From an uncultured Pirellulaceae bacterium (GTDB lineage: Bacteria > Planctomycetota > Planctomycetia > Pirellulales > Pirellulaceae): a DNA stretch of 51,900 nucleotides. Position 1 is the first letter of the stretch. Each line of letters starts with the position of its first letter. Below the pieces are notes generated by a model. It was given only the letters and a program-made list of their open reading frames with translations, did no database searches and had not been told where the DNA came from. The translations under genes and the position numbers were made by a program. Of this stretch, positions 10,241 to 49,700 are shown piece by piece. The stretch spans positions 1 through 51,900 of the forward strand of contig CAJQQR010000099.1 in the NCBI GenBank assembly GCA_905480545.1, in the 5' to 3' direction.

Positions 10241-10477
10241 TTTCGCCAGAAAAACCAGCAAATGCCAAACCACTTCAGCTTTCACAGGTTGTAGAGTCAG
10301 GTGGTCTGGATAGGGTCGCGATTGAAACAAGTCGTATGTTGTGCTTCAAAATTGGCGGTTTGCTTTTACATGATTTCAGGTTGCTGTTAGCATAGTGAAG
10401 GATGCAGCGAAAATGCGGTTTTCCCCGGCCCGCTTTTGCATTCCATTCCCTTTCAAATTACTTTCACGCTACCCAAC

Positions 10478-12526
10478 ATGAAAATACTGGTTGTTTTTGC
10501 GATTGCCCTACTCGGTTTGGGGATTGGGATTGTTGTTTTTGTTTTGGCGAACGGCCCAGTTGCGCCCGATGAAGGTAAACGCAGGGAACAAAATGAAGAT
10601 GGACTTCGCCGGTTTTCAGTCAAAAATTCATCTGGGGAAAAGAAGGCTGATTTTTTCGTTCGCTCAACGAATCGATCTGGAATCTCGGAAGTCGCCGAGA
10701 CAAAGTTATCGTTAAGACAACAAGTTTCATTTGAAGGTCTTCGGTATTATCCCAACGGGAATTTGTTGTTCTGGTGGGATGAAATGCCAAGTACCGTGAA
10801 TGATGAAAGTTTTGAAACGGGGCCCGAAAGCAATATCCACCCTGATGACTATGCTGGAGCCGATTCATGCGCTGAGTGCCATCAAACGAATTTTGATCAA
10901 TGGTCAGAACACCCACATCGTTGGATGAATGCGGAAGCGAAATCTGAAACGGTGAAGGGCGATTTTTCAGATACCGCTGAGATCAATTATCTTGGCGGTC
11001 GCGCGCGTTTTAGTCAGTCAAATGAGGGATATCAGATGACGTTAACTCGCGATGATGTGACGTATGTCTATCAAATTGACCAAACTTTGGGCTCTCGTTT
11101 TTTTCAATACTATATCGGCACATTAACGGAAGGCCCATTTCCAGAAGACCATCCGTATCGGACGGACATTCATGTTCTTCCTTTTGGTTATTGGTTGAAA
11201 GAAAAGCAATGGATTCCTGTTGTGCATGTTGGACCGGAATTGCCTGATGGGTATCGGACCGATCCATTCGCAATGCCGATGACACCCGAGACGGGGAAAT
11301 CATTTTTACCGTACACTAAATATTGCAACATGTGTCACTCGACGTTTCCGTTGGCAGACAACATGTTTCGTAAGTCATTTACACTTTCAAAGCACTCGCC
11401 AGGAATATTTCATTTGGATATGGCGGGTTATCTTGCCGAGCATCATGAAGAACTCTTGCCGGCTGGTGTGGAACGTGAGACCGCGACGACCGAACAAATC
11501 CTGTCGATTCCGCCGAAAATGACGAAGTTCAATGCGGGAGATCACGGTTCAACATTTGGAATTAGCTGTGAGGCCTGCCACTTTGGTTGTGCACAACATG
11601 TCGCAGATCCAAAGTCGTTGCCGAGTTTTGCGGCAAAGAGTGAATTTCTTCGCCAGCAAAATGGGAAGAAAGAAATCGAAACGGGACGAACGCACGAGAA
11701 TTTAAACTGGGCATGCGGTCGTTGCCACACCGGAAACCGTCCCGAATATGCAGGCGGAATGTCAACTTGGAATTCCACAGAATACACGGATGCGATGAAA
11801 GGATCGTGCTATTCCCAATTGAAATGCATCGACTGCCATTCACCTCATCAAGCGACCGGAATGAAGTGGACAAAGACGCCAATGCAGGATGATGCAACAT
11901 GCACGAAATGCCACGAACAGTTTCTGGATCAGGCTGAAATTGCGAAACACACTCACCATCCGGTGGGAACGGAAGGTTCGCGGTGCATGAATTGCCACAT
12001 GCCAAAAATCAATGAAGGGCTTCAAGACGTCGTGCGAACACACACTATTTTTTCACCAACGATGCCATCGATGATCGAAAGTAATCATCCGAACGCTTGT
12101 AACCTTTGCCATACCGATCAGAACATTGATTGGACAACAAAGCACTTGAAGGAATGGTACGGTGCCAATTACAGCCAAAATCGAATCGCCGCCAGTCACC
12201 GATCGAATAAGGACGCAGTCGGATTAGGTTGGCTAAAAAGTGACAACGAAGCCGTTCGGCTCACTGCCATCGATGCGATTCGGCGAAACAAAGACCATTG
12301 GGCAATGGACTTTTTGATTGATCGTTTGGACGACTCCCATTTGCTGAACCGGCAGTTTGCTCAGCAGGCGGTCCAGGAACTGGCTGAGGTCGATCTGGAT
12401 GATTTTGGTTATCAATTTTTTATGACACCAGCCGAACGCCGCGAACCCATTGAGAAGATTCGTGCCAAACTGATAAAGGCAAACGACAAGAAAGTTTTGA
12501 TGAAATCTTCAACCGATCTAAAATAG
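10478..12526 (+). CDS. octahaem c-type cytochrome with C-terminal HEAT-like region
   Basis: The ATG at 10478 gives 682 residues starting with a membrane anchor or signal (MKILVVFAIALLGLGIGIVVFVLA); an upstream TTG at 10436 is possible but adds a segment without features. Eight haem-binding CxxCH motifs are readable in order: CAECH, CNMCH, CEACH, CGRCH, CIDCH, CTKCH, CMNCH and CNLCH. The first belongs to a 'SCAECH..FDQWSEHPH' block like the cytochrome c554-type domain. After the last haem, about 110 residues look like HEAT repeats (AVRLTAIDAIRRNKDHWAMD). It is presumably a periplasm-facing electron carrier or reductase. It stands alone, without quinol oxidase or nitrite-reductase partners, so the substrate is unknown. 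Confidence 0.87.
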   Translation: MKILVVFAIALLGLGIGIVVFVLANGPVAPDEGKRREQNEDGLRRFSVKNSSGEKKADFFVRSTNRSGISEVAETKLSLRQQVSFEGLRYYPNGNLLFWWDEMPSTVNDESFETGPESNIHPDDYAGADSCAECHQTNFDQWSEHPHRWMNAEAKSETVKGDFSDTAEINYLGGRARFSQSNEGYQMTLTRDDVTYVYQIDQTLGSRFFQYYIGTLTEGPFPEDHPYRTDIHVLPFGYWLKEKQWIPVVHVGPELPDGYRTDPFAMPMTPETGKSFLPYTKYCNMCHSTFPLADNMFRKSFTLSKHSPGIFHLDMAGYLAEHHEELLPAGVERETATTEQILSIPPKMTKFNAGDHGSTFGISCEACHFGCAQHVADPKSLPSFAAKSEFLRQQNGKKEIETGRTHENLNWACGRCHTGNRPEYAGGMSTWNSTEYTDAMKGSCYSQLKCIDCHSPHQATGMKWTKTPMQDDATCTKCHEQFLDQAEIAKHTHHPVGTEGSRCMNCHMPKINEGLQDVVRTHTIFSPTMPSMIESNHPNACNLCHTDQNIDWTTKHLKEWYGANYSQNRIAASHRSNKDAVGLGWLKSDNEAVRLTAIDAIRRNKDHWAMDFLIDRLDDSHLLNRQFAQQAVQELAEVDLDDFGYQFFMTPAERREPIEKIRAKLIKANDKKVLMKSSTDLK

Positions 12527-17639: not shown

Positions 17640-18464
17640 TTATGGATCAATCGGTTTGGCGACCGATGGCGAAACGTAACGGCTTTCTCCACAAGCGTAA
17701 GTCGCACAAGATCCATTGTATTCCCAGCATTCTTTACAATGCGGGGTGCGACAACGGAAACAGGTCACCAATTCGGTCTGGATTTCCTCACCGCAAACCT
17801 GGCATTTGATTTCATCAACGATTTGACCCTTTGCATCGTCAACGAAGTCGATTCCCACTGTTCGTGTTAGCATCGACTGATCAAAAAGCTCGAGCGAATA
17901 CCTGACAAAGTCATCGAGAACTTGATTGGTTCGAATAAAAGATGGCTTTTTGATGACCAGTGAGCCACGGTTAATCATCAAGTAAATGTCATCAGATGCC
18001 AGGAACCTGCAAAGCCGCGTGATTTGCCAACGAACGCCCTCGGAAAGAAATCCCCGCGCGAGGATCTCGTCGTTGGATCGAACGATAAAGAGTTGGTCGA
18101 ATTCCGTAAAACCAGTCGTGATTTCCTGCATACCACTAAGGGGCCACAGCTTTGTGACGCGCCACCGAGGTACAATCTCTAGCCGCAAGTCGGTATGCGG
18201 CCAGGAGATCGAAATCTGCGTGAATTCTCCGCCCCCGGCAACATTCGTTTTGATTGAGCTTAAGAAACAGGGGGCTTCTCCATAACGAAATCGTGCTGAT
18301 GGCCGACCAAACCAACCGGATGGGTTGCACTGCCCGCCGTATTTCTTAGCAATCGCGATGTAAGAACGATTCCAATTATCAGATCGCAGTTGCGTTCGGG
18401 TAGCGGCGCTGATCACAAACACGACAACGGCGGCCAAACACAAAAATGTCAATAAACACTCCAC
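17640..18464 (-). CDS. membrane-anchored RING-like zinc protein, candidate E3 of the Ubl operon
   Basis: This last gene of the ubiquitin-like operon starts at a GTG (18464) preceded by GAGG at a good distance. The 274-residue product has one N-terminal membrane helix (residues 3-21), about 190 residues of unassigned alpha/beta sequence, and a C-terminal zinc module at 221-258: CQVC (221/224), CFRC (235/238), H242-C243, C246, C253 and C258. This C-x2-C...C-x2-C-x3-HC-x2-C...C-x4-C pattern is RING/treble-clef-like and resembles the prokaryotic RING family predicted by comparative genomics to accompany bacterial E1/E2 operons. An E3-like role, bringing charged E2 to substrates at the membrane, is inference. 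It lies 74 bases after the inactive-E2 gene. Confidence 0.78.
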   Translation of the reverse strand: MECLLTFLCLAAVVVFVISAATRTQLRSDNWNRSYIAIAKKYGGQCNPSGWFGRPSARFRYGEAPCFLSSIKTNVAGGGEFTQISISWPHTDLRLEIVPRWRVTKLWPLSGMQEITTGFTEFDQLFIVRSNDEILARGFLSEGVRWQITRLCRFLASDDIYLMINRGSLVIKKPSFIRTNQVLDDFVRYSLELFDQSMLTRTVGIDFVDDAKGQIVDEIKCQVCGEEIQTELVTCFRCRTPHCKECWEYNGSCATYACGESRYVSPSVAKPIDP

Positions 18465-18538
18465 TTAGTTCCTCAATCGCATACAGAGTTTTTTTTCACG
18501 GCACCGATTCAAAAAAAGCCCTTTGTTCAAGTTGATTT

Positions 18539-19342
18539 TTAGTCAATAAACATGATGTCATCATCATTTCGGGAAGGATTTGACGGTAGATCATCCGATC
18601 GATTTGTTGGGGATTTGGTTGAGGGTGGAATTGGAGATGCGGGAAATTCAATCGGAGATTCGTCAGTTGAATGTTCCTTGGCTGAATCCAGTTGAACCGG
18701 CCGTTGTTGCATTGGCAATGGTTGTGCTGGCAGAGCTGGAGACCGTTCTTCGCCTCCGATGTAAAGCACATCGCGATCTTGTTGTTTGACGATAGCGGAT
18801 CGAGATTTCTTTTCCGTGCGACGAACGTACTGAACAACATTGGATTGTCTTGCAATCGAATGGTCTCGAAGCGGGCGAGGATCAAGCGGAAGTTTGAACG
18901 CACATTTGTTTCGATACCAATCACGAGCCGTGTATTGGCTTGACCCATTAAGATCAACGTGAGCGAGTCGAATGACGTCCCATAATCGCTCGCAAATAAT
19001 TTCGATCGAAAGATTCTCTTCCCAAACCAATCCAATGTCTTCCAAGTCGACAAATCCGCTATTGGACAAATTGGGATGAAAAATTGGGGTAAGCCATTTC
19101 AAATCCGGTTCGCGGGCTGGATACAAGTAGGCCATTTGGATTTGGATTTGATGGAGCTCGACAACTTCTGGTTCCGAATCCGATCCGTTCGGGCGTCCGA
19201 TTCCTTTACCGGAAAAGGTAACAATGAACTTGTCCGGCGGATCGCCCGAAAACTCAAAATCAAAAATCGAGCTTTGTTTTTTTAGCCCGCGAAGTGTCTC
19301 AACCTCTTGCCATAACCGTTTTTCTCGATTTTCATCGCTCAT
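18539..19342 (-). CDS. E2-like (UBC fold) protein lacking the catalytic Cys; UEV-like
   Basis: The 267-residue protein has a UBC-like domain in residues about 10-165. The segment LKWLTPIFHPNLSNSGFVDLED holds the E2 hallmark HPN at 89-91. At the position where the paralogue at 22868-23647 has its active Cys (eight residues after the HPN Asn), this protein has Asp99, so thioester formation is not possible there. Flanking residues align well with the paralogue (SSIFDF/SSILDF, FSGKGI/FHGKGL, CERLWDVIR/CKMLWDMIR). A Pro/Ser-rich linker ends in DDDIMFID, nearly identical to the paralogue's tail. It is likely a UEV-type partner or regulator of the active E2. The start is 32 bases after the membrane JAB stop codon. 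Confidence 0.85.
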   Translation of the reverse strand: MSDENREKRLWQEVETLRGLKKQSSIFDFEFSGDPPDKFIVTFSGKGIGRPNGSDSEPEVVELHQIQIQMAYLYPAREPDLKWLTPIFHPNLSNSGFVDLEDIGLVWEENLSIEIICERLWDVIRLAHVDLNGSSQYTARDWYRNKCAFKLPLDPRPLRDHSIARQSNVVQYVRRTEKKSRSAIVKQQDRDVLYIGGEERSPALPAQPLPMQQRPVQLDSAKEHSTDESPIEFPASPIPPSTKSPTNRSDDLPSNPSRNDDDIMFID

Positions 19343-19374
19343 CTATTTACTACTCGGGATTGATTACCAATGAG

Positions 19375-20799
19375 TTATTCGCGTTTGTCGGTGGAATCTT
19401 TGCTTTCTTCGTCTCGGATTTCAAATGGCTCCGCCGCAGGTTCCGATTCGGCCTCGGATTCGTTGGTTGTTGGTTCAGTGTTCGTTGAAGAGGACCTTGA
19501 AATGGTCTCACGCTCTCTATCGAAAATCTCGCCTTGTTCCTCATCTCGGAACCGGCCAAACAAAAAGCCCGCAATGCCTGCACCGATCCCGGTGACAAAA
19601 ACTGCGACGACGAAAATGGTGATCACCAAACCATCCTGGAAGAAAGAAATACCACCTTCGCCCGATTCTTTTAAACTTTTGAGTTTTGCGTTAGTTGTTT
19701 TTAATGTCTTGCTCTTTATCTCCAATTCTGCTTCAGCCTTTTTGAGCTCAGAAGTAGACTTTTTGGACTTCGCCAACGCTTTGCTCAATGCGGTTTTCAT
19801 AACGTCACGATTTACATTTGCATCCTCAGCACGTTTTGCTAGTTCTAAATTATTTCCAAGTGCGATGGCCAGTTCTGCTTTTCCATCGCCGGCAGCCTTT
19901 AGTGCAAGTTGCATCACCTCCACTTTTTCAGCGTAGTTTTTGCTGTCGACCAGATCTTCGACTTTTTTGGTGATATCGGCTAATTGACTGGCATCGGGGC
20001 CACTGAATAGTAGTTTCCAGGAGATGAGCATGAGAAAGAAGAATTGCATCGTTAGCAATGCCATAATTCCCAGATTCAGGTTTGAGTTTCGCGAATCGCT
20101 GATGTTGACAATCGGAGCGGACTGCGGGCCAATCGAGCCCGCAATTCCCGAGTTTCTAAATTCAGGTGACATACCCAATTTGCCTTTCAATTGATGAGCG
20201 AAATACTCGATTTCGGATTGACGGAATCGAGAGCCAATTAAGTAAAAGCCACCCGTTCGACGAATCCGATCTTTAGCAGCAGGCTCCCAATGAAACCAGC
20301 CGCGATCACCACGACACGGATCAATCACCAACGCCAAATCGAGTGGGCGATTGAAAAAGTTGTCGCAAATAAACATGTCCATGCCAGATAAAAACACACC
20401 CCAATCCGGATGCGTATGGTACCAGCCGACCATTTGTAATTCTTTTGGGAATTCGTCCCGTTGACGAGAAATTTGCTGCCAAGTCTCGTGCGTGAACTTA
20501 AAGCTTCCCTTGGTCGCCTCGTAGTGCTCAGCGCGAAGACTATCGGTGACCAGCACAAATGCGTTGCCCTCGTCGTCTTCAAATTGTCCGCCCAGCATCA
20601 CACCGCCAAGTTCGACCGACGTATCGGTCAAGGCATGCGACTCCATATCTCGCATCACATCGATGTCGACAAAAATGGGAAGGTCAGCGTCCTCGGGGGA
20701 ATGGACGGGTACTACTGCATAATGACGATTTTGATCAGGCCGTAATTGGACATCGGGTCCCGCCTCCTCAACATCACCAAATTGCATGTCCATGTCCAC
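19375..20799 (-). CDS. membrane-anchored JAMM/JAB metalloprotease with periplasmic coiled coil
   Basis: The 474-residue protein begins with a JAB/MPN domain: E63 in VELGGVMLGG, then GWYHTHPDWGVFLSGMD, giving zinc ligands H128, H130 and D141 and the conserved S138. This is the complete JAMM motif of deubiquitinase-type isopeptidases. After the catalytic domain come a hydrophobic helix (about 244-265), a charged coiled coil (about 272-380, many Ala/Lys/Glu), a second hydrophobic helix (about 388-415) and an acidic Ser/Thr/Glu tail. With the JAB domain in the cytoplasm, the coiled coil would be periplasmic. It is a paralogue of the soluble JAB at 22211-22756. The start could also be the ATG at 20793 or 20787. 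Confidence 0.87.
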   Translation of the reverse strand: MDMDMQFGDVEEAGPDVQLRPDQNRHYAVVPVHSPEDADLPIFVDIDVMRDMESHALTDTSVELGGVMLGGQFEDDEGNAFVLVTDSLRAEHYEATKGSFKFTHETWQQISRQRDEFPKELQMVGWYHTHPDWGVFLSGMDMFICDNFFNRPLDLALVIDPCRGDRGWFHWEPAAKDRIRRTGGFYLIGSRFRQSEIEYFAHQLKGKLGMSPEFRNSGIAGSIGPQSAPIVNISDSRNSNLNLGIMALLTMQFFFLMLISWKLLFSGPDASQLADITKKVEDLVDSKNYAEKVEVMQLALKAAGDGKAELAIALGNNLELAKRAEDANVNRDVMKTALSKALAKSKKSTSELKKAEAELEIKSKTLKTTNAKLKSLKESGEGGISFFQDGLVITIFVVAVFVTGIGAGIAGFLFGRFRDEEQGEIFDRERETISRSSSTNTEPTTNESEAESEPAAEPFEIRDEESKDSTDKRE

Positions 20800-20876
20800 A
20801 ATACGTTTTTACCCTTTATAAGTTTTTAAAAAACAGCGATTTAGCTGTTCTTCTATTTTAGTCGATCGTGCGTCGA

Positions 20877-22058
20877 TTAGGGGCGATATCGTTTTTCGTA
20901 GAGCGAATCGCGATCACCATCCAGTTCCAGAAACACCTCTTTGTCGTCCGTCTGAAAGCAAACAACATCGTACGCCGGAATCCCCACTTCATCGATACGC
21001 TTCGAAAGCAGTCCGGAGTCTGAATTGATTAAATGCGTCAAATTGGGTTTGCGATCCGTTCCACAGATTTCACATTTGATTCGATTGGCATTCACGGAAT
21101 AGGTTGGAAGGTATACCGGTTCAGAAGAATTGCACTGAACGCAATCGATTGTTTGCACGAGGTCTCTATCGAGGTTTAGCGAAACGTTTTTGGATTGTAA
21201 TTTTTCTTCCGCAAAACCGAAAAGCTTTTCCAACGGGTCAGACGCGGATAAACCGGTTTTCAATGCCTCGCCATAAGTGTGGTGGCTGAGGCAGTCTGGA
21301 TTGTGCTGGTAATTGGTTTTGTAGAAATTGTTTGCGATTCCGTTGAAAACCATGGCCCCGCCGTCTTCGACTTTCATGCCGTGTATCAGTTTTAGGGCCT
21401 CCTGAGTTTGGAGTCCTGCGATGATGGACGCAATGGTAGGAGCGGTCGGGACTTTGCCCTCAAGAATGTCTTCTCTTTTTAAAAGTGGGCAGCTGTATCT
21501 TAAGCTCATTAAACGATAATCATTTTCAGTCATGGCACATTCGTAGCAGGCACCGTCTGGTGGAACGAATACTTTAGCTACGCCGTTGATCTCTTGAATC
21601 CCACCATCAACCCAGGGTGTGCCGACTTTCCACGACATGCGGTTGACCCATAATCTGGCTTCGCGATTGTCCAAACAACCAATGATTACATCCATATCGC
21701 GGATCAGGCCAAGGCCGACATCGGTCATAACGTTTCCATGCGTCGGATAGAAAGTTGTATCGCGATTCATGTCATAAAGGGCTTTCGCCGCAGCGTGAAC
21801 TTTAGGTTGGCCGTTATCCGCTTCTCGAAAAAGCACCGAACGGGTCAGGTTGGAGTCTTCGACGCAATCCAAGTCGATTCCAAAGACGTGCCCTACGCCC
21901 ATTAAAGCAAGGTTTTTCGCCACTTCATTACCGAGTGCGCCGATTCCAACAACAAGCACTTTGGCCGAATGCAGTTTCTCCTGATCCCACCAAGCGATCA
22001 ATCGCATTCGGGAATACCGGTCATCGTCGTCAATAATGAGAGCGTCGTCGGAAGGCAT
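20877..22058 (-). CDS. E1-like ubiquitin/ThiF-fold activating enzyme with extra C-terminal zinc ribbon
   Basis: The 393-residue protein has the ThiF/E1 adenylation fold: VLVVGIGALGNEVAKNLALMGVG (nucleotide loop at 38-43), DLDCVEDSNLTRSVLF with the R73 expected to contact ATP phosphates, and GCLDNREARLWVNR. C171/C174 (CYEC) match the first half of the usual zinc site. C190 in RYSCPLL is the best candidate for the catalytic Cys on the crossover loop. Beyond the E1 core, C306/C309 and C329/C332 form another CxxC-x19-CxxC zinc ribbon. It would adenylate the C-terminal Gly of the Ubl at 23932-24219 and pass it to the E2. It lies between the soluble and the membrane JAB genes. Confidence 0.9.
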   Translation of the reverse strand: MPSDDALIIDDDDRYSRMRLIAWWDQEKLHSAKVLVVGIGALGNEVAKNLALMGVGHVFGIDLDCVEDSNLTRSVLFREADNGQPKVHAAAKALYDMNRDTTFYPTHGNVMTDVGLGLIRDMDVIIGCLDNREARLWVNRMSWKVGTPWVDGGIQEINGVAKVFVPPDGACYECAMTENDYRLMSLRYSCPLLKREDILEGKVPTAPTIASIIAGLQTQEALKLIHGMKVEDGGAMVFNGIANNFYKTNYQHNPDCLSHHTYGEALKTGLSASDPLEKLFGFAEEKLQSKNVSLNLDRDLVQTIDCVQCNSSEPVYLPTYSVNANRIKCEICGTDRKPNLTHLINSDSGLLSKRIDEVGIPAYDVVCFQTDDKEVFLELDGDRDSLYEKRYRP

Positions 22059-22210
22059 ACTAAATTAGGTACTCCAGATGGGATGATTGTGCAGTTGCAA
22101 AATGACGGAAAGGTGATGACCTCGGGATTTCGCTGGCTTCCATTTTACCGGCCAACCCCTCGCGGTTTAATCCATGCATCGATCACCAGCTTTCCAACGG
22201 GGTATGGTTC

Positions 22211-22756
22211 TCAATTTGTATCGGGAACGTAAACAAATCCGCAATCATGGACGTCATCCTGTTGCCATTGAAAAAACGCAAACTCGCGTTGGTTGGGATC
22301 GACGACCATTGCGATCTGCCAGTCACAGCCGAAAAAATTCCGATGAATAAAAAGGTCATAGGCCGACAGGAATACGCCCAGCCCGGGATGAGTGTGGTGC
22401 CACCCGATGATTCGCTTGTCGCTAAATCGCGACGCGACCTCATTGTTAGCTTGTGACCAAGTATCGTGAGTAAAAGTCAGTGAAGCAGAATGCGATTTGA
22501 CGTCGACCGCCGGTAAAAAGTGCTCTACTTCGACATAGCGAAAATCTTTTCCGGAATCCTTGTCAACATAAAGATTGCCAATCAAGAATCCACCGATCTC
22601 TCGTTGCAAATCTTCGTCAGAAAAATCCAGAATTGCATCAAGGACACAGTCGCGAATGAAAATGGTTACTGCCTTTTTTTCGATGCGTCCAATCCGCTGA
22701 CATTTACCGTTGATTGACTGTTTTATCGGAGCAGGTTTTGCGATCGGCTCGATCAT
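22211..22756 (-). CDS. soluble JAMM/JAB metalloprotease of the Ubl operon
   Basis: The 181-residue protein is a compact JAB/MPN domain without membrane segments. The active site is complete: E53 in REIGGFLIG, and GWHHTHPGLGVFLSAYD supplying H121, H123, S131 and D134. JAMM proteases with this context cleave ubiquitin-like modifiers from targets or trim precursors. The Ubl here already ends in Gly, so deconjugation is the more likely job. The start ATG has a strong AAGGAG seven bases upstream, the best ribosome-binding site in the operon. Sequence around SLTFTHDTW and GVFLSxxD is shared with the membrane-anchored paralogue. Confidence 0.9.
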   Translation of the reverse strand: MIEPIAKPAPIKQSINGKCQRIGRIEKKAVTIFIRDCVLDAILDFSDEDLQREIGGFLIGNLYVDKDSGKDFRYVEVEHFLPAVDVKSHSASLTFTHDTWSQANNEVASRFSDKRIIGWHHTHPGLGVFLSAYDLFIHRNFFGCDWQIAMVVDPNQREFAFFQWQQDDVHDCGFVYVPDTN

Positions 22757-22867
22757 TTCTTAACTCCTTTATTGTTTCACCAACAATTGCTTATTTGAGC
22801 ATGCCAATGGTCTCGGATGAGTATCCGCGAAAAGCCATTCGTGCTTGTTGACAAAATATTGGACCAA

Positions 22868-23647
22868 TCATTCGATAAACATGATGTCGTTGTCGTTGTC
22901 CAATTCTCCGTTGGGTCGCTTTGGTGGATCTGTTGGGTCGAGAAAGTGAACCTCGGATTCATTAATGCGATTGTGATCAGGATTGGCAGGTGAATGTGAA
23001 CTCTGTATTGGCGAAATAGGCGGTATCGAAGATGGCCCGCCTAAATTTGAAGGGGGGCCGGGCCGCGTTGGTTGCCGCTGCAATTCGGCTCTTCGACTCT
23101 CTAGTCGCCGGGAATCTGCTCCCTCTGTCTTCGCGTCTTCCCGTACGACGTTCACAATGTTTCGAAGTGGGCGATCGTCCACAGGAAGGGTGTATAGCGT
23201 TTGGTTCTTGGTCCAGACCGCTGCCTCACGATTGTAGGGACTTTCGATATCAAAATTTCTGTATCGAATCATGTCCCACAGCATCTTGCATAATTCATCG
23301 ATCATCAAGCTTGGAACCCAATGCGTTCCGTATCCACCCAAACAAACCACACCACTGGCTGATATGTTGGGGTGAAAAATCGGTGTCTGCCATGCTAACT
23401 CCGGGATCATGCGTGGATAAGCAGAAGTTAGCGTGATTGTAACTTCGTGATAATCCCGCAACATGACGTCGGTGGAGTCCGGGACTCGAAACAGCCCTTT
23501 TCCGTGAAAGGAGATTCGATATTGCTCAGGCGGGCTTCCGCTGCCCTGGAAATCAAGAATTGAGCTTTCTTTTGAAAGTTCCTGCAAAGCTCGAAAGTCG
23601 GAGTTCAGTCGGCGCTCACGTGGCGATCGCCGTCGTTCAAATGCCAT
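22868..23647 (-). CDS. E2-like ubiquitin-conjugating enzyme with catalytic Cys
   Basis: The 259-residue protein has a UBC fold in residues about 15-165. LAWQTPIFHPNISASGVVCLGGYGTHW contains the HPN motif at 92-94 and the catalytic Cys at 102, the same spacing pattern as canonical E2s. WVPSLMIDELCKMLWDMIRYRNFD follows as in the C-terminal helices of E2s. A Pro/Ser/Gly-rich disordered tail of about 80 residues ends in DNDIMFIE. It would accept the Ubl from the E1 at 20877-22058. Its paralogue five genes later in the operon keeps HPN and the tail but has Asp instead of the Cys. A gap of 284 bases with three 17-bp tandem repeats separates it from the Ubl gene. Confidence 0.9.
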   Translation of the reverse strand: MAFERRRSPRERRLNSDFRALQELSKESSILDFQGSGSPPEQYRISFHGKGLFRVPDSTDVMLRDYHEVTITLTSAYPRMIPELAWQTPIFHPNISASGVVCLGGYGTHWVPSLMIDELCKMLWDMIRYRNFDIESPYNREAAVWTKNQTLYTLPVDDRPLRNIVNVVREDAKTEGADSRRLESRRAELQRQPTRPGPPSNLGGPSSIPPISPIQSSHSPANPDHNRINESEVHFLDPTDPPKRPNGELDNDNDIMFIE

Positions 23648-23834
23648 GAATTATTCCAATTATCACTTCGTTGAGTCGGCCCTGAATGATCAAGGCTCAA
23701 AAAATGCTTTATTCCAGTAGGTTAACGTTAAATCGCGAATCGCCGCTTCCGGCATTCACCTCATTCGTTTTGATAAAACCTTTAACGACAAAAACGTGTA
23801 ATATCAACCAATCGTAAGAAGAGCGTCGCTGGCG

Positions 23835-23885
23835 GGTCTCAACGCGTGACAGGTCTCAACGTGTGACAGGTCTCAACGTGTGACA
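23835..23885. repeat. three 17-bp tandem repeats between Ubl and E2 genes
   Basis: Three adjacent units of GGTCTCAACGyGTGACA (23835-23851, 23852-23868, 23869-23885) differ at one position only, and a partial fourth unit begins afterwards. They lie in the 284-base gap downstream of the Ubl stop and upstream of the active E2. They may be a protein-binding array or a polymorphic spacer. No gene is recognised in this gap. Confidence 0.85.
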
Positions 23886-23931
23886 GGTGCCGGAGCGAAA
23901 CGTGACTGGCAACAGATGCCCTCATGCAGGC

Positions 23932-24219
23932 TTACCCTGCAACAATTTCTGGGTAGACAATGAGATGGTCACCTTCTGAAACTCCAGAATCACCCAGGGT
24001 CTGATCTTCTCGCAGTCGTCTACCACCTTCCTTGTGATCAAGGCTGTAGCTCATTGGTTGGCCGTCTGGACCCATTACGGGAAGATTCATTTTGGTAATG
24101 ATGTTCGGTAAGATTCGCTTGACAGTAACTGAATCTGCAATCACGGCCTCGACTGATTTAGCACCCGTTTGATCAAGAAAAGTAACCCGGGTACCCTGTC
24201 TCTCATTCACCTGCGACAT
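23932..24219 (-). CDS. ubiquitin-like modifier protein, YukD/EsaB-like beta-grasp
   Basis: The 95-residue protein has the pattern of a beta-grasp fold: VTFLDQTGAKSVEAVIADSVTVKRILPNIITKMNL, a Gly/Asp turn (PDGQPMSYSLDHKEGGRRL), DQTLGDSGVSEGDHLIVYPEIVAG. The 'L-x-x-x-x-TL-x-x-x-GV-x-x-GD-x-L' ending is typical of ubiquitin and of YukD/EsaB-type proteins. The chain ends directly after a single Gly (VAG), which suits E1 adenylation without proteolytic maturation. It is the first gene of the E1/E2/JAB/RING operon. A GGAG motif lies seven bases before the ATG. YukD relatives also serve type VII secretion, but no such genes are nearby. Confidence 0.87.
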   Translation of the reverse strand: MSQVNERQGTRVTFLDQTGAKSVEAVIADSVTVKRILPNIITKMNLPVMGPDGQPMSYSLDHKEGGRRLREDQTLGDSGVSEGDHLIVYPEIVAG

Positions 24220-24832: not shown

Positions 24833-25669
24833 ATGGGCTTTCTCAATCAATTTTTTGCGGATGTGTTTAATCAAGACACCGCAACGCCGAAAAAAAACAG
24901 TTCCTTCGAAAAGATCAGCAACGAGGAACTCAAAGTTCATCTTAACATCGCCAAGTATGATGACTTTGAGTTGACCGATGCCATTCGTCCATCGTACGAC
25001 ATTCGGATTAAGCCCCAACAGGCCTACCGATATGATTGTTATGTCGATGAAGAGAACGGATCGAATGTGCCCGTCATCATGGCGTCTGCCACTCGCCATG
25101 AGCTTTTCGACCTATTCATCGAATTAATTCGCCCGTTGGGTGATACTGTCGATGTCGTTTTGGAAACCAGTCACAACAACAGCGACGGGCATAATGACCT
25201 GTACCGGGAGTCAATCGACATGCCCGTGCTGAAAAGCATTCTCTATGAATATGAAGATTTGCTTGTGAATGATGGCTGCACCGGAATCGCTGTATTGAAT
25301 CCCAATATTCCGCAGGAAGTCCAATTCGACGAACATAAGTTGTTGATGATTTACGGGAGTCCACTTGAGGCTTACGAGCACACACTGGAGACGAACAATG
25401 TCATCTTCAATCCAAAGGTCAAGTTCCTAACCGAAGCGGAACATGTTCATTCAACGACCGAAGATTACCAACGCCAGTTTGAAGAATTGAAAACGGCTCT
25501 TGGTATGGACGGTGATGAATATGGAAAAGAACGTCGCGACGAGCGTGATGTTGATGGCTTTGCCGGAGGAGTCGGTGAATTCGATGATGAGTTTGAGTTG
25601 CCAGAATCTGGATGTTATGAATTCGAAGATCCTTTTGACGCAGAGGATGACGGCTATTCAGCATGTTGA
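24833..25669 (+). CDS. acidic protein of unknown function
   Basis: The 278-residue protein has no signal peptide or membrane helix. Residues about 28-200 look globular with alternating strands and helices (LKVHLNIAKYDDFELTDAIRPSYDIRI, ATRHELFDLFIELIRPLGDTVDVVLETS, CTGIAVLNPNIPQEVQFDEHKLLMIYG). The last 70 residues are very rich in Asp, Glu and Gly and probably disordered. The pattern resembles cytoplasmic conserved proteins of planctomycetes, but I cannot assign a family. It is divergent from the Ubl operon, sharing its upstream region, so co-regulation is possible. Confidence 0.72.
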   Translation: MGFLNQFFADVFNQDTATPKKNSSFEKISNEELKVHLNIAKYDDFELTDAIRPSYDIRIKPQQAYRYDCYVDEENGSNVPVIMASATRHELFDLFIELIRPLGDTVDVVLETSHNNSDGHNDLYRESIDMPVLKSILYEYEDLLVNDGCTGIAVLNPNIPQEVQFDEHKLLMIYGSPLEAYEHTLETNNVIFNPKVKFLTEAEHVHSTTEDYQRQFEELKTALGMDGDEYGKERRDERDVDGFAGGVGEFDDEFELPESGCYEFEDPFDAEDDGYSAC

Positions 25670-26754: not shown

Positions 26755-27723
26755 ATGACCACTGAAATCAACGAAAAGTCGGGTATTGCGGCGGTTTGCC
26801 GCCGAATTGCAAAGTCCAACTTCTTTGAATATTTCATATTAGGTGTGATCTTGGTCGCCGCGGCGCTCGTTGGAATCGAGACCTACTATATTGAACCCGC
26901 GGGGGTGGCTCCCCATGTTTCGCAGGTGGGTGATGCACAGTTTTGGCTTGACATCATGAACCAAGTTGTGCTTTGGGTTTTCGTGTTGGAGGCCTCCATC
27001 AAGATTGGCCAATATGGAACGAGGCCATGGTTGTATTTCAAGGACCCCTGGAACGTTTTTGATTTTTCGATCGTCGTCATTTGCTTTCTCCCATTAAACG
27101 CATCGTTTGCCACGGTCCTTCGTTTGGCAAGGATCATGCGAGCGTTGCGACTATTAACCGCTGTTCCGCAATTGCAACTGATCGTTAGTGCCTTGCTTCG
27201 AAGTATCCCGTCGATGGGGTATGTTGGCGTCCTGTTGCTTTTGAACCATTACGTGTTTGCTGTGATTGGCGTCTTTCTTTTTCAAGAAAACGACCCTGTC
27301 CATTACTGCGATTTACCGAGATCAATGCTAACGCTATTTCGCGTTCTTACGTTGGAAGATTGGACCGATGTCATGTACATCAACATGTACGGAAGTGACT
27401 CATACCCGGACTACGAAGGGCTTTCCACGATTGATACCGGTATCACGCGAGTTTCCACTGCGAGTCCGTTGGTTGCAGCTGCCTATTTTATTACATTCGT
27501 CGTCTTCGCAACAATGATCATGTTGAATTTGTTTATCGGTGTTATCATCAATAGCATGGATGAAGCACGTGCGGAGCGAGACGATGAGGATCGTCTCACA
27601 AAGCGTGGGGCGGGAAAAAAACATGGCCCGGAAGAAGATATCGACGTCATCAATGGTCAGTTAGATGACTTGAAAGAGAGTTTGTCTCAGCTGAAAATTC
27701 GCATCAAATCTGGCTCTACCTAG
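26755..27723 (+). CDS. six-helix voltage-gated-type cation channel
   Basis: The 322-residue protein matches the single-domain voltage-gated ion channel fold (NaChBac/Nav-like). Helices S1-S3 include FFEYFILGVILVAAALVG and KDPWNVFDFSIVVICF. The voltage sensor S4 carries four arginines three residues apart (R123, R126, R129, R132). The pore loop has TLEDWTD at 199-205 in place of the TLESWSM-type sodium filter. About 45 residues, rather long for a bacterial channel, separate it from S6 (AAAYFITFVVFATMIMLNLFIGVIINSM), and a short coiled-coil tail follows (INGQLDDLKESLSQLKIRI), typical of tetramer assembly. The extra Asp residues in the filter suggest divalent-cation conduction; this is inference. 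Confidence 0.9.
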   Translation: MTTEINEKSGIAAVCRRIAKSNFFEYFILGVILVAAALVGIETYYIEPAGVAPHVSQVGDAQFWLDIMNQVVLWVFVLEASIKIGQYGTRPWLYFKDPWNVFDFSIVVICFLPLNASFATVLRLARIMRALRLLTAVPQLQLIVSALLRSIPSMGYVGVLLLLNHYVFAVIGVFLFQENDPVHYCDLPRSMLTLFRVLTLEDWTDVMYINMYGSDSYPDYEGLSTIDTGITRVSTASPLVAAAYFITFVVFATMIMLNLFIGVIINSMDEARAERDDEDRLTKRGAGKKHGPEEDIDVINGQLDDLKESLSQLKIRIKSGST

Positions 27724-27944: not shown

Positions 27945-29834
27945 ATGGGGAAAGCCACAGAGATACATCAAATTCACAGCAAGATCCCCGGCAAGCATTT
28001 TTTCCGTGCGTTAAAAGGCACGGAAGAAATGGGTTGCAATTTTCTTTACGAGGTTACGTTTTACAGCGAGGAGCCGGACCTCGATCCAAAAAAAGTTTTG
28101 GGGGAAGAGTTTTGCGTTGAGGTGACTCGTGAATCGAGCAGTCGTTTTTTTCATGGCATCATTTGTGATTTTTTAAACGTTGGCACGTTCGGGGGCTATC
28201 AGGTTTATCGAATCGAAATGCGTCCAGAGTCTTGGTTGTTGACGCAGCAATTTGACTGTCGAATTTTTCAAAACAAGACCATCGTTGCCATTATTGAAGA
28301 AGTTCTGAAAAACAAAACTAACCTCGTCAATGTTAAGAAGAAGCTTACGGGCAATTATCAGGCACACGAGTATTGCACGCAGTATCGGGAATCCAGTTTT
28401 GACTTTGCGTGCCGTTTGATGGAACAGGAAGGCATTACTTTTTACTTCGAGCATGAAAAATCCAAGCATACATTGGTATTGGCCGATGCAAACTCACAGG
28501 TCCCCCCCATCAAGGGAACTTCTACGGTCAACTACCGTCCGCCCGGCCAAGCGATGCTTGGCGAAGAGCATATTTCTCGATGGCAACAAACACATCGATT
28601 ACGATCCGGACAGGTCGCCCTATCCGATTATGATTTCGAAAATTCGAAAGGTGATTTGCTGGTAAAGTCGATTGACAAAGGCGAGCACAAACACAATGCC
28701 TTCGAACGTTATGACTATCCAGGGAAATATTCAGCGAGAAATGCTGGCGAAGCTTATTCGAAAGTCATTCTAAATGAGTTGCGGACTCAGCATCAGTTAA
28801 CGACGGTTGTCGGAAATGCGATTGGGTTGAGCGCGGGTTATTCGTTCACCTTGGCCGATCATCCAGTTAAGAAGCTTAATACGGGTTACCTGATCTCGCA
28901 TGCCAAGATTAATGTCGAATCCGGTGAATTGGAGCAATTTGGTCAGGCGCAAAACGTATTTGAAGTTGAACTGACGGTTGTCGATCAAAAGGTCAAATTT
29001 AATGCTCCGCGAAGAACGGAAAAACCGTTCGTTCATGGCCCACAGACCGGTTTCGTTGTGGGGAAAAAGGATGGCGATATCAATACCGACAAATATGGTC
29101 GCGTAAAGGTTCAGTTGCATTGGGACCGTCTTGGAAAAAAAGATGACCAAAGCTCTTGTTGGATTCGCGTATCGCAAGGGTGGGCGGGACCCGGATGGGG
29201 GATGATACATACGCCACGAGTCGGTAACGAAGTCGTCGTTAACTTTTTAGAAGGCGATCCCGATCGGCCCATTGTGACCGGATCTTTGTACAACGATGCG
29301 AACGCAGCACCCTACGAATTGCCGAAACACAAAACCCGCAGTGGAATCGTGACTCGTTCAGATCAAGGCAAAAACACGCAGTTCAATGAACTTCGGTTTG
29401 AAGACAAAAAAGATTCCGAACAAGTTTTCTTTCAGGCCGAGAAAGATTTCGAACGCCTTGTCAAGAACAATGACAAGTTGACCGTCGGAGCCAAAGGTGC
29501 GGACAAGGGTGATCAAACGATTGAAATTCTTAATGACCGCTCGCTGACGGTCAAAGAAGGAAACATGACAACGGATGTCAAGAAAGGTGATATGAAAACC
29601 ACGGTCACTGGCGATTGTCTAATCGAGTCAAAGAAACAAATCACATTGAAAGTGGGGGGAAGCAAAATTGTGATTAAGTCTTCCGGAATCGTAATCGATT
29701 CACCCGATGTTAAGATTAACGGCACGACGATCACCATCTCAGCGAAAACGAAGTTGGGCGCGAAGGGGGCGATTGTCAATGTTTCTGGTAGCTCGATGAC
29801 GGAAATCAAAGGCGCCATGGTAAAAATCAACTGA
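27945..29834 (+). CDS. vgrG: VgrG-type spike protein (type VI secretion or related contractile system)
   Basis: The 629-residue protein has the VgrG order of domains: an N-terminal gp27-like half (GKHFFRALKGTEEMG, YCTQYRESSFDFACRLMEQEGITFYFEH), a gp5 OB-fold at about 370-450 (TDKYGRVKVQLHWDR, WIRVSQGWAGPGWGMIHTPRVGNEVVVNFLEGDPDRPIV), and a C-terminal beta-helix with short repeats (TVKEGNMTTDVKKGDMKTTVTGD). The end GAMVKIN recalls the PAAR-contacting tip. No toxin domain is fused to the C-terminus. No tss baseplate, sheath or Hcp gene lies in the window, so this is an orphan or scattered vgrG. The FHA gene follows 14 bases later. Confidence 0.92.
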   Translation: MGKATEIHQIHSKIPGKHFFRALKGTEEMGCNFLYEVTFYSEEPDLDPKKVLGEEFCVEVTRESSSRFFHGIICDFLNVGTFGGYQVYRIEMRPESWLLTQQFDCRIFQNKTIVAIIEEVLKNKTNLVNVKKKLTGNYQAHEYCTQYRESSFDFACRLMEQEGITFYFEHEKSKHTLVLADANSQVPPIKGTSTVNYRPPGQAMLGEEHISRWQQTHRLRSGQVALSDYDFENSKGDLLVKSIDKGEHKHNAFERYDYPGKYSARNAGEAYSKVILNELRTQHQLTTVVGNAIGLSAGYSFTLADHPVKKLNTGYLISHAKINVESGELEQFGQAQNVFEVELTVVDQKVKFNAPRRTEKPFVHGPQTGFVVGKKDGDINTDKYGRVKVQLHWDRLGKKDDQSSCWIRVSQGWAGPGWGMIHTPRVGNEVVVNFLEGDPDRPIVTGSLYNDANAAPYELPKHKTRSGIVTRSDQGKNTQFNELRFEDKKDSEQVFFQAEKDFERLVKNNDKLTVGAKGADKGDQTIEILNDRSLTVKEGNMTTDVKKGDMKTTVTGDCLIESKKQITLKVGGSKIVIKSSGIVIDSPDVKINGTTITISAKTKLGAKGAIVNVSGSSMTEIKGAMVKIN

Positions 29835-29848
29835 ATCGGAATTGGACG

Positions 29849-30730
29849 ATGCAAATTTTTCTTCATGTCGAAAAGGGACCGCATATTGGTCGCCGGCTTG
29901 CGATCCGTTCTGGACAGATCGCGAGTTTCGGAAAAACCGAGCGATCCGATCATTGTTTGGAACAAGATGTTGAGTTGGCGGATCAGCATTTTCGAATTCA
30001 GGTAAAAGACACATGCACCATCGAGGCGATCGAAATTGACGCGGAATTTCTCGTAAACGGCGAAACGCCGGAAGATTCAAGCCTTGTCAATGGAGATATC
30101 ATATCTGCTGGAATGTCCGTTTTCCGAGTTGAAGTCGAAGGTGAAATGATTAGCGAGCATTTACCGGAACCGAGTCCTTCCGAATCGAATTCCAACCCGG
30201 TTGTTGAATTTGTTGACTTACCGCAGCTTTGCACCGACCTGGATTTGGGCGAGGAAGCATTGGCAGAAGCTTCGAAACACAATTCGACTGATGGTTTTTT
30301 AAAAGGTTTGATCGCGGCAAAGTTGTTTAACGACGCTATTCGACTCCATGTTCACCTCATGTTGCCGGCGGACGCAATTCAATGGGCGGTTGCGTCGATA
30401 CAAGCTCTTTTAAATAACAATTTGACGCCATTGGATTCGGACGCAATCCAAAAGGCTGCAGATTGGGCGAGCGATCCAAGTGAAGCAAGCCGACGATTAT
30501 GTGGAAGAATTGCTGAAGAGCGGGAATATGAGGGAGTTGGAGGAACACTCGCGCTTGCAGCGTTTCTTAGTGGTGGCAATATCGCACCGGAAGATCTTGA
30601 AGGCGAAGTGCAACCTGAGCCGTTCTCGTTTGGACAAGCCACCGCAGGTGCCGTTATGCTAGCTACCGTAGACATCCATTCGGACGATGCAGACGAACTG
30701 ATTGGATCGATTTTGAAGCCCAGCGATTGA
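29849..30730 (+). CDS. FHA-domain protein, VgrG-linked
   Basis: The 293-residue protein starts with an FHA-like beta sandwich in residues 1-95 (IGRRLAIRSGQIASFGKTERSDHCL, LADQHFRIQV, FLVNGETP, LVNGDIISAGMSVFRVEV). The usual SRxH core reads ADQHF, so phosphothreonine binding may be weak or altered. After a Ser/Pro/Glu linker, residues 115-293 form an alpha-helical domain of unknown role, possibly the DUF6931 type. It starts 14 bases after the VgrG stop with a GGA motif before the ATG, so translation is probably coupled. FHA proteins regulate type VI secretion through Ser/Thr phosphorylation in other bacteria. Confidence 0.82.
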   Translation: MQIFLHVEKGPHIGRRLAIRSGQIASFGKTERSDHCLEQDVELADQHFRIQVKDTCTIEAIEIDAEFLVNGETPEDSSLVNGDIISAGMSVFRVEVEGEMISEHLPEPSPSESNSNPVVEFVDLPQLCTDLDLGEEALAEASKHNSTDGFLKGLIAAKLFNDAIRLHVHLMLPADAIQWAVASIQALLNNNLTPLDSDAIQKAADWASDPSEASRRLCGRIAEEREYEGVGGTLALAAFLSGGNIAPEDLEGEVQPEPFSFGQATAGAVMLATVDIHSDDADELIGSILKPSD

Positions 30731-49647: not shown

Positions 49648-49700
49648 TCTACGCTCGACTGAATTTACTGAAACTAATTGAGGGGACAGACAAAAAGGGA

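What the first reader, a model, noticed from the sequence alone, without database searches (positions are those of the whole stretch)
17640..24219. Complete seven-gene ubiquitin-like conjugation operon in a planctomycete
Seen: a Ubl, an E2 with HPN and Cys, a soluble JAMM, an E1, a membrane JAMM, a Cys-less E2 and a membrane RING-like protein, all on one strand with gaps of 32-284 bases. Known: Bil-type antiviral operons and CBASS Cap2/Cap3 carry fewer parts, and comparative genomics predicted RING-containing bacterial E1/E2 operons. Inferred: this is a full modifier cycle (activate, conjugate, ligate, remove) whose ligation and one removal step are tied to the membrane. The doubled E2 and JAB with one degenerate or tethered member each could be a distinct subtype.
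Basis: partly seen in the sequence, partly recalled or inferred. Interest (0 to 1): 0.93.

Follow-up and report, generated by a model that had tools for sequence, protein, structure and literature searches.

The report
Planctomycete membrane-linked ubiquitin-like tagging cassette
A planctomycete bacterium carries seven adjacent genes for a ubiquitin-like protein and for enzymes predicted to attach it to other proteins and take it off again, likely at the inner membrane, and dozens of related bacteria carry the same cassette in a five-gene or a seven-gene form.

Summary
In detail: seven same-strand genes (17640-24219) encode a YukD-type Ubl, an HPN/Cys E2, a soluble JAMM, an E1, a two-TM JAMM, a Cys-less E2 (UEV) and a one-TM RING protein. 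An E1-guided scan gave 63 further loci, 56 of them named planctomycete. Planctomycete Ubl/E1/E2/JAB/RING operons were already reported (Burroughs 2011, seen here only through later papers), so this is a new variant of a known kind. New here: (1) a five-gene core and a seven-gene form; soluble JAMM and UEV occur together in 18 of 43 bounded cassettes, JAMM alone in 1, UEV alone in 0, though this needs only about three changes on the E1 tree; (2) both E2-fold proteins end in an acidic-hydrophobic, SIM-like motif (55 of 57 E2, 17 of 19 UEV, 4 of 501 flanking ORFs); (3) the Ubl has an invariant Ala-Gly end followed by 0-17 residues or a fused E2; (4) the RING protein's middle domain has the fold of TtfA, the MmpL3 partner; (5) in much of its family the cassette lies at one chromosomal site that is empty or RING-only in some relatives. 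Most likely a reversible, membrane-sited tagging pathway rather than Bil/CBASS defence. Conjugation is untested, and the intact RING-only relic argues that the RING protein may not be a dedicated E3.

The parts
23932..24219 (-). Ubiquitin-like protein (95 aa, YukD family, single beta-grasp domain) ending exactly at ...YPEIVAG
   Evidence: PF08817 3.5e-16. Gly95, Lys21, Lys43 and Lys63 in 55 of 55 aligned rows. C-terminal tails after the AG: none in 29 of 56 rows, 1-17 aa in 24, a fused E2 in 2, not placed in 1.
22868..23647 (-). Active-type E2 (259 aa): HPN 92-94, Cys102, long tail ending DNDIMFIE
   Evidence: UQ_con 4.7e-13; best solved relative an E2 A (UBE2A) chain, 3.3e-8; tail motif in the last 14 aa in 55 of 57 E2s, 1.5 expected by shuffling.
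22211..22756 (-). Soluble JAMM protease (181 aa), GWHHTHPGLGVFLSAYD
   Evidence: PF01398 5.7e-9; metal motif; on the quick tree soluble and membrane JAMMs fall on two sides of one branch, support 99.
20877..22058 (-). E1-like activating enzyme (393 aa): ThiF domain, Cys190, likely zinc site Cys171/Cys174/Cys256/His259, Zn ribbon 306/309/329/332, C-terminal domain
   Evidence: ThiF 2.3e-51; Cys190, Cys171 and Cys174 in 60 of 60, the other listed positions in 59 of 60 rows. Catalytic and zinc roles are inferred.
19375..20799 (-). Membrane JAMM (474 aa): JAB domain, TM 241-259, about 130-aa charged loop, TM 391-409, acidic tail
   Evidence: PF01398 9.8e-10; exactly two hydrophobic segments after the JAB domain in 44 of 54 rows, loop 116-169 aa.
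18539..19342 (-). Cys-less E2 variant, UEV-like (267 aa), tail with two acidic-hydrophobic motifs (DVLYIG and C-terminal DDDIMFID)
   Evidence: UQ_con 1.6e-7; HPN kept and no Cys at the active position in 19 of 19 rows; motif twice or more in 18 of 19 tails.
17640..18464 (-). RING-like membrane protein (274 aa): TM 3-21, TtfA-like domain 28-204, zinc finger about 218-270
17691..17804 (-). Zinc-ligand positions of the RING-like finger: C221 C224 C235 C238 H242 (or C243) C246 C253 C258, with W247
   Evidence: Invariant in 43 of 43 aligned rows, but those rows were picked by a pattern that fixes the first five; without that choice 60 of 64 hits keep a full finger pattern, the other four being cut or broken ORFs.
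24833..25669 (+). Divergent neighbour (278 aa, no Pfam family): core gene that marks the chromosomal site, not part of the cassette
   Evidence: Found in 60 of 60 genomes, own included; in the fetched stretch of 24 of 64 loci.

Best explanation
The seven genes encode a single-domain ubiquitin-like protein, an E1-like enzyme, two E2-fold proteins, two JAMM proteases and a RING-like membrane protein, which together likely form one reversible protein-tagging pathway whose final attachment step is predicted to take place at the inner membrane. Steps, all inferred from sequence: a JAMM trims the Ubl to its C-terminal Gly95 where a tail is present; the E1 adenylates Gly95 and takes it on Cys190; the HPN/Cys102 E2 receives it; the RING protein, anchored by one TM helix and carrying a TtfA-like domain that would dock to a membrane transporter or other membrane protein, brings the charged E2 to a membrane client; the two-TM JAMM removes the tag at the membrane. 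In the seven-gene form the Cys-less E2 would pair with the E2, as Mms2/UEV does with Ubc13, to build or read Ubl-Ubl linkages on one of the three invariant lysines, and the soluble JAMM would take those linkages apart; this would explain why the two come and go together. The shared acidic-hydrophobic tail motif of both E2-fold proteins would hold them to one common partner, most simply the Ubl itself in the way a SUMO-interacting motif does. The likely purpose is upkeep of inner-membrane or envelope proteins as a chromosomal cell function, not phage defence. Shown here: the parts, residues, recurrence, tails and sites; the fold is a prediction. Not shown: any reaction, any substrate, any pairing.
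Confidence: 0.5

Rival explanations
1. The conjugation cycle is real but the RING-like protein is not its E3: it is a membrane zinc protein with a TtfA-like domain that acts on envelope transport and is a client or neighbour of the Ubl pathway, which conjugates without a dedicated ligase.
For: In genus g18 the site keeps only the RING protein, with all zinc ligands, between the transglutaminase-like lipoprotein and the NUDIX gene (L065, L072), in genomes without this E1. In a phylum draw Prok-RING_1 was found in 63 of 393 genomes and the E1 in 29 of 392; the two draws overlap but were not shown to be identical. Finger fold match is weak.
Against: The RING gene lies in or beside 36 of 43 bounded cassettes, often as two or three copies, and 60 of 64 hits keep the full finger pattern.
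Confidence: 0.25
2. It is an antiphage system of the Bil, Bub or CBASS Cap2/Cap3 kind, with the Ubl attached to phage or effector proteins.
For: Same enzyme classes; weak PADLOC matches of the E1 to E1-E2 models (7.6e-18) and BilD (1.6e-7); patchy distribution, 29 of 392 phylum genomes, own included.
Against: No nucleotidyltransferase or known effector among the window genes scanned; PADLOC gives no model for Ubl, UEV or RING at 0.01; in part of the family the cassette lies at a core-gene site with empty and RING-only versions, and 21 of 37 genomes of that family, own included, carry the E1; single-domain Ubl and HPN E2 differ from BilA and BilB.
Confidence: 0.12
3. The YukD-like protein is an assembly factor of a type VII-like secretion machine and the other genes serve that machine rather than protein tagging.
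For: Best family is YukD, with a weak match to EccD far below its cut-off and chains of ESX complexes among Foldseek rows.
Against: No ESX gene among the gene models scanned around the cassette (the large ORFs at 43777-51899 were not scanned); B. subtilis YukD is reported not to be conjugated (Iyer 2006, passage), whereas this Ubl has an invariant terminal Gly and processed-looking tails and its own E1 and E2.
Confidence: 0.04
4. The E1 and Ubl carry out sulphur transfer for a cofactor, as ThiF/ThiS and MoeB/MoaD do.
For: ThiF and MoeB are the nearest NCBIfam models of the E1, all far below cut-off.
Against: An HPN/Cys E2 nearest to UBE2A among solved proteins, a UEV and two JAMMs have no place in it; the genome has a separate weaker match of the E1 query at C76.
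Confidence: 0.03

Closest known systems
Bacterial Ubl/E1/E2/JAB/RING operons of Burroughs, Iyer and Aravind 2011 (Mol BioSyst 7:2261); Pfam Prok-RING_1
   Same: Planctomycetes are among the stated carriers (PMC4197634 passage). By recall, that paper proposed conjugation of YukD-like Ubls and membrane Prok-RING_1 proteins beside Ub, E1, E2 and JAB.
   Different: The paper itself is not held, so whether it drew the seven-gene form, the UEV or the tail motifs could not be checked.
FtsH-ternary MoxR/vWA systems (PMC7159879, eLife 2020)
   Same: Complete bacterial Ubl conjugation with JAB, E1 and RING, Ubl and E2 in one protein (passages); two loci here also fuse Ubl and E2.
   Different: Ubl is a lone domain; no MoxR match on the window's contig (17 elsewhere in the genome); no FtsH or caspase-like partner among the window genes scanned.
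Caldiarchaeum subterraneum Ub/E1/E2/RING/Rpn11 operon (PMC5654768, PMC4197634, passages)
   Same: Same five functions in one cluster; its ubiquitin is among the top folds for this Ubl.
   Different: Bacterial YukD-type Ubl, membrane anchors on the RING protein and one JAMM, a second JAMM and a UEV; no proteasome link looked for.
BilABCD and CBASS Cap2/Cap3
   Same: E1, E2 and JAB classes.
   Different: BilA has two Ubl domains and BilB a CEHH motif (PMC11354881 passages); here one Ubl domain and HPN/Cys. No cyclase or effector among the window genes scanned.
Ubc13-Mms2 type E2/UEV pairs (recalled)
   Same: An active E2 encoded beside a Cys-less E2-fold partner.
   Different: Pairing not tested; E2 and UEV fall on two sides of a branch with support only 49.
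TtfA (mycobacterial MmpL3 cofactor, 6t84)
   Different: 11% identity; by recall TtfA has no zinc finger.

Membership tests
RING-containing bacterial Ubl-conjugation operons (Prok-RING_1 type) | Ubl, E1, E2, JAB and Prok-RING_1 genes in one operon | tested here: met
   recurs. Co-transcription itself not tested.
RING-containing bacterial Ubl-conjugation operons (Prok-RING_1 type) | E2 with eukaryote-like HPN/Cys active site and E1 with a C-terminal extension (feature recalled) | tested here: met
   That the E1 C-terminus is a UFD was not tested.
RING-containing bacterial Ubl-conjugation operons (Prok-RING_1 type) | Covalent Ubl adducts made with the RING as ligase | not testable with these tools
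   Needs biochemistry.
BilABCD | BilA with two tandem Ubl domains | tested here: not met
   One 95-aa domain; BilA description from a passage of PMC11354881.
BilABCD | BilB-type E2 with CEHH motif | tested here: not met
   HPN at 92-94 and Cys102, aligned with UBE2A.
CBASS type II Cap2/Cap3 | Fused E1-E2 protein beside a CD-NTase (recalled) | tested here: not met
   Separate E1 and E2; no CD-NTase among the window genes scanned.
FtsH-ternary MoxR/vWA system | MoxR, vWA and double-FtsH genes in the operon, EAD1 on the Ubl | tested here: not met
   No MoxR match on contig C99; Ubl is a lone domain. A vWA protein lies about 14 kb away at 38817-43748, not in the operon. FtsH was not searched for separately.
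Type VII secretion YukD | YukD gene beside ESX ATPase and WXG100 genes | tested here: inconclusive
   None among the gene models scanned; the ORFs at 43777-51899 were not scanned; one YukD in the genome.
UEV (Mms2-like E2 variant) | UBC-family protein without the active Cys | tested here: met
   UQ_con match; no Cys in 19 of 19 rows. Its fold was not predicted.
UEV (Mms2-like E2 variant) | Heterodimer with an active E2 and linkage-specific chain synthesis | not testable with these tools
   No complex prediction was possible with the jobs available.
RING/U-box E3 fold | Cross-brace of eight zinc ligands and RING fold | tested here: inconclusive

The most novel reading that the evidence does not exclude
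A bacterial counterpart of membrane-protein ubiquitination: a RING ligase built on a TtfA-like membrane cofactor domain tags inner-membrane transporters or their clients with a YukD-type Ubl; an E2/UEV pair held to the Ubl by SIM-like tails makes Ubl chains that a dedicated soluble JAMM edits; and a two-TM JAMM with an extracytoplasmic loop couples untagging to the state of the envelope. In Isosphaeraceae an M48 membrane protease in the same gene string would be the disposal arm.
Probability: 0.25. Interest if true: 0.88.

Novelty: new variant of a known kind. Interest (0 to 1): 0.62.

Why it matters
Bacterial Ubl conjugation known from experiment is, as far as I recall, mostly studied as phage defence. 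A chromosomal, membrane-sited pathway with E1, E2, UEV, RING-like protein and two JAMMs would show that elaborate ubiquitin-like tagging also serves ordinary bacterial cell biology, and would offer a small system in which to ask how chain building, tag-binding motifs and membrane ligases arise. Several parts give direct tests: Gly95, Cys102, the tail motif, the UEV/soluble-JAMM pair, and the natural five-gene, seven-gene, RING-only and empty sites.

Tried and rejected
Mobile defence island: not favoured. The divergent neighbour occurs in 60 of 60 genomes, own included; NUDIX, cobalamin adenosyltransferase and GlnD genes (named by my reading of their sequences, not scanned) lie beyond the cassette in loci of both forms; of six fetched sites without the system, three are empty (L066, L068, L069), two are RING-only (L065, L072) and one was not resolved (L067). 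Of the 21 own-family genomes with the E1, 11 have it within 15 kb of that neighbour on one contig by comparing; in the other 10 the two lie on different contigs, so some cassettes may sit elsewhere. Isosphaeraceae-type loci have other neighbours. Gain or loss cannot be told from this alone.

SIM-like docking by structure: AlphaFold2 of the natural Ubl-E2 fusion L015 gave confident Ubl and UBC domains but an undocked tail; the gappy alignment makes this inconclusive. A scan of 60 genomes, own included, for genes ending in the exact motif gave 28 matches, 17 of them at cassettes by comparison; of the other 11, two end in TGG and are not stops; the backwards control gave 3. The nine outside carriers were not identified. 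The motif is not in JABm or RING ends, and modestly above expectation in E1 ends (5 of 71 in the last 14 residues against 1.4).

A first motif count lost 28 of 55 E2 and 9 of 21 UEV to a parsing rule; one search replaces it and drops four rows whose HPN was not recognised (one E2, three UEV), the far loci L062, L063 and L073-L075, and duplicates. Its 501 controls are longest-ORF proxies for flanking genes. JAMM/UEV count: 72 cassettes tabulated, 43 bounded and counted, 7 bounded but skipped for a missing E2 or membrane-JAMM label, 22 unbounded. Two of the skipped, L074 and L075, and the unbounded L073 were labelled UEV by my pattern, but one search shows an active-site Cys, so they are E2s and no counter-examples. 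UEV as a recent duplicate of E2: not decided, support 49. The 43 rows of the RING alignment were picked partly by the finger pattern, hence the unselected recount.

Full report
What is there. The finding is real. On the minus strand, 24219 down to 17640, lie a Ubl, an HPN/Cys E2, a soluble JAMM, an E1, a two-TM JAMM, a Cys-less E2 and a one-TM RING-like protein, with gaps of 284, 111, 152, 77, 32 and 74 bases. Pfam supports each. Among solved proteins the E2 is closest to UBE2A (3.3e-8) and the E1 to UBA7 and MoeB. The Ubl belongs to the YukD family, the only match in this genome, but it ends in a Gly that is invariant in its relatives (55 of 55).

Recurrence. An E1-guided scan of bacterial and archaeal genomes returned 63 loci: 56 named planctomycete, two named only as bacterium, and five named Abditibacteriales, Deltaproteobacteria, Blastocatellia or Thiomargarita. 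The scan finds close relatives, so the true spread may be wider. Within the own family 21 of 37 genomes, own included, carry the E1 (E below 1e-95), in other families of the order 1 of 23, and in a draw across the phylum 29 of 392, own included, at 1e-45 (13 of 216 among the better assemblies). A divergent second type exists: E1s of L057, L070 and L073-L075 branch together, and the Ubls of L057 and L073-L075 end QPEITAG, some with a tail.

Two forms. Gene strings fall into a five-gene core, Ubl-E2-E1-JABm-RING, with RING first in Isosphaeraceae-type loci, and a seven-gene form that adds the soluble JAMM between E2 and E1 and the UEV after JABm, with one to three RING copies. In 43 bounded cassettes both extras occur in 18, the JAMM alone in 1 (L013), the UEV alone in 0, neither in 24. 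The two genes are not adjacent, so joint presence is not one insertion. But on the E1 tree this needs only about three changes per gene and gives one starred independent pair, so shared ancestry explains much of it. L016, branching outside the planctomycete clades and cut at its 5' end (not counted), has both.

Ends and tails. Of 56 Ubl rows, 29 end at the Ala-Gly, 24 go on for 1-17 residues, 2 run on into an E2, 1 was not placed. That is what a modifier trimmed by a protease would look like; it does not show trimming. Both E2-fold proteins have long, otherwise poorly conserved tails that end in an acidic-hydrophobic motif such as DIMFIE or DVLYIGDE: within the last 14 residues in 55 of 57 E2s (1.5 expected on shuffling) and 17 of 19 UEVs (0.2 expected), against 4 of 501 flanking ORFs (6.0 expected); 39 E2 and 18 UEV tails hold two or more. 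Many rows are close relatives, so these are not independent counts. The likeness to SUMO-interacting motifs is my reading, from recall of their form. AlphaFold2 did not dock the tail.

The site. The divergent gene at 24833-25669 is a core gene, found in 60 of 60 genomes, own included, and lies in the fetched stretch of 24 of 64 loci. In many of these the order is that gene, a transglutaminase-like lipoprotein (scanned in L018), the cassette, then genes that I read as NUDIX, cobalamin adenosyltransferase, PII and GlnD; the own window has no lipoprotein gene between. Among six fetched sites without the system, three are empty (L066, L068, L069), two of one genus keep only the RING gene with intact zinc ligands (L065, L072), and one is unresolved (L067). 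A shared site with whole-cassette presence or absence fits a cell function lost at times better than a wandering defence island. The RING-only relic is the strongest single result against treating the RING protein as a dedicated ligase.

What is known. A 2014 review states that planctomycetes carry operons related to the archaeal Ub/E1/E2/RING/JAMM operon, citing Burroughs 2011 (passage); a 2020 paper describes complete Ubl conjugation with RING in FtsH-ternary systems (passage). The Bil and CBASS features tested are not met; PADLOC gives nothing at 0.01 for this Ubl, UEV or RING protein, and NCBIfam nothing for UEV or RING and only a sub-cut-off EccD match for the Ubl. Hence: a new variant of a known kind.

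Mechanism. I hold most likely a reversible Ubl-tagging cycle with its last steps at the inner membrane (0.5). Activation, transfer, ligation, chain building, tail docking and the envelope role are all inferred. The best rival is the same cycle with a RING protein that is not the E3 (0.25).

Noticed in passing
window 24833-25669: A 278-aa protein with no Pfam family that is present in 60 of 60 genomes searched, own included: an unnamed core gene of this order.
   Followed up: partly
window 27945-30730: A VgrG-like spike protein (Phage_GPD 4e-88) followed by a DUF6931 protein with a weak FHA-like match, then a 1778-aa ORF: a possible contractile-injection cluster next door.
   Followed up: partly
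window 26755-27723: An ion channel (Ion_trans 1.9e-48) with a weaker polycystin match.
   Followed up: no
window 38817-43748: A 1643-aa protein with a von Willebrand A domain, preceded by a PPIC-type isomerase protein at 36665-38665.
   Followed up: no
window 10436-12526: A multihaem cytochrome-like protein of 696 aa.
   Followed up: no
L015 8968-9909, L022 8967-9908: Natural in-frame Ubl-E2 fusions of 313 aa in two MAGs, where release of the Ubl would need cleavage after Ala-Gly.
   Followed up: partly
L075 4924-6231: In the divergent second cassette type, a Prok-RING_1 finger (1.4e-5, below its cut-off) fused to a trypsin-like protease domain.
   Followed up: no
L024 12716-17163 and similar loci: M48 membrane peptidase directly after JABm, then an MMPL transporter; the same gene clusters occur in seven and six loci.
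   Followed up: partly
L032 1684-2283 and 13 similar loci: A gene that reads as a GNAT acetyltransferase (my reading, not scanned) close upstream of the Ubl on the same strand.
   Followed up: no
L070 and L071 (both G019): One genome with two cassettes: a seven-gene-type one with no cassette gene recognised after E1, and a divergent E1-JABm pair elsewhere.
   Followed up: no
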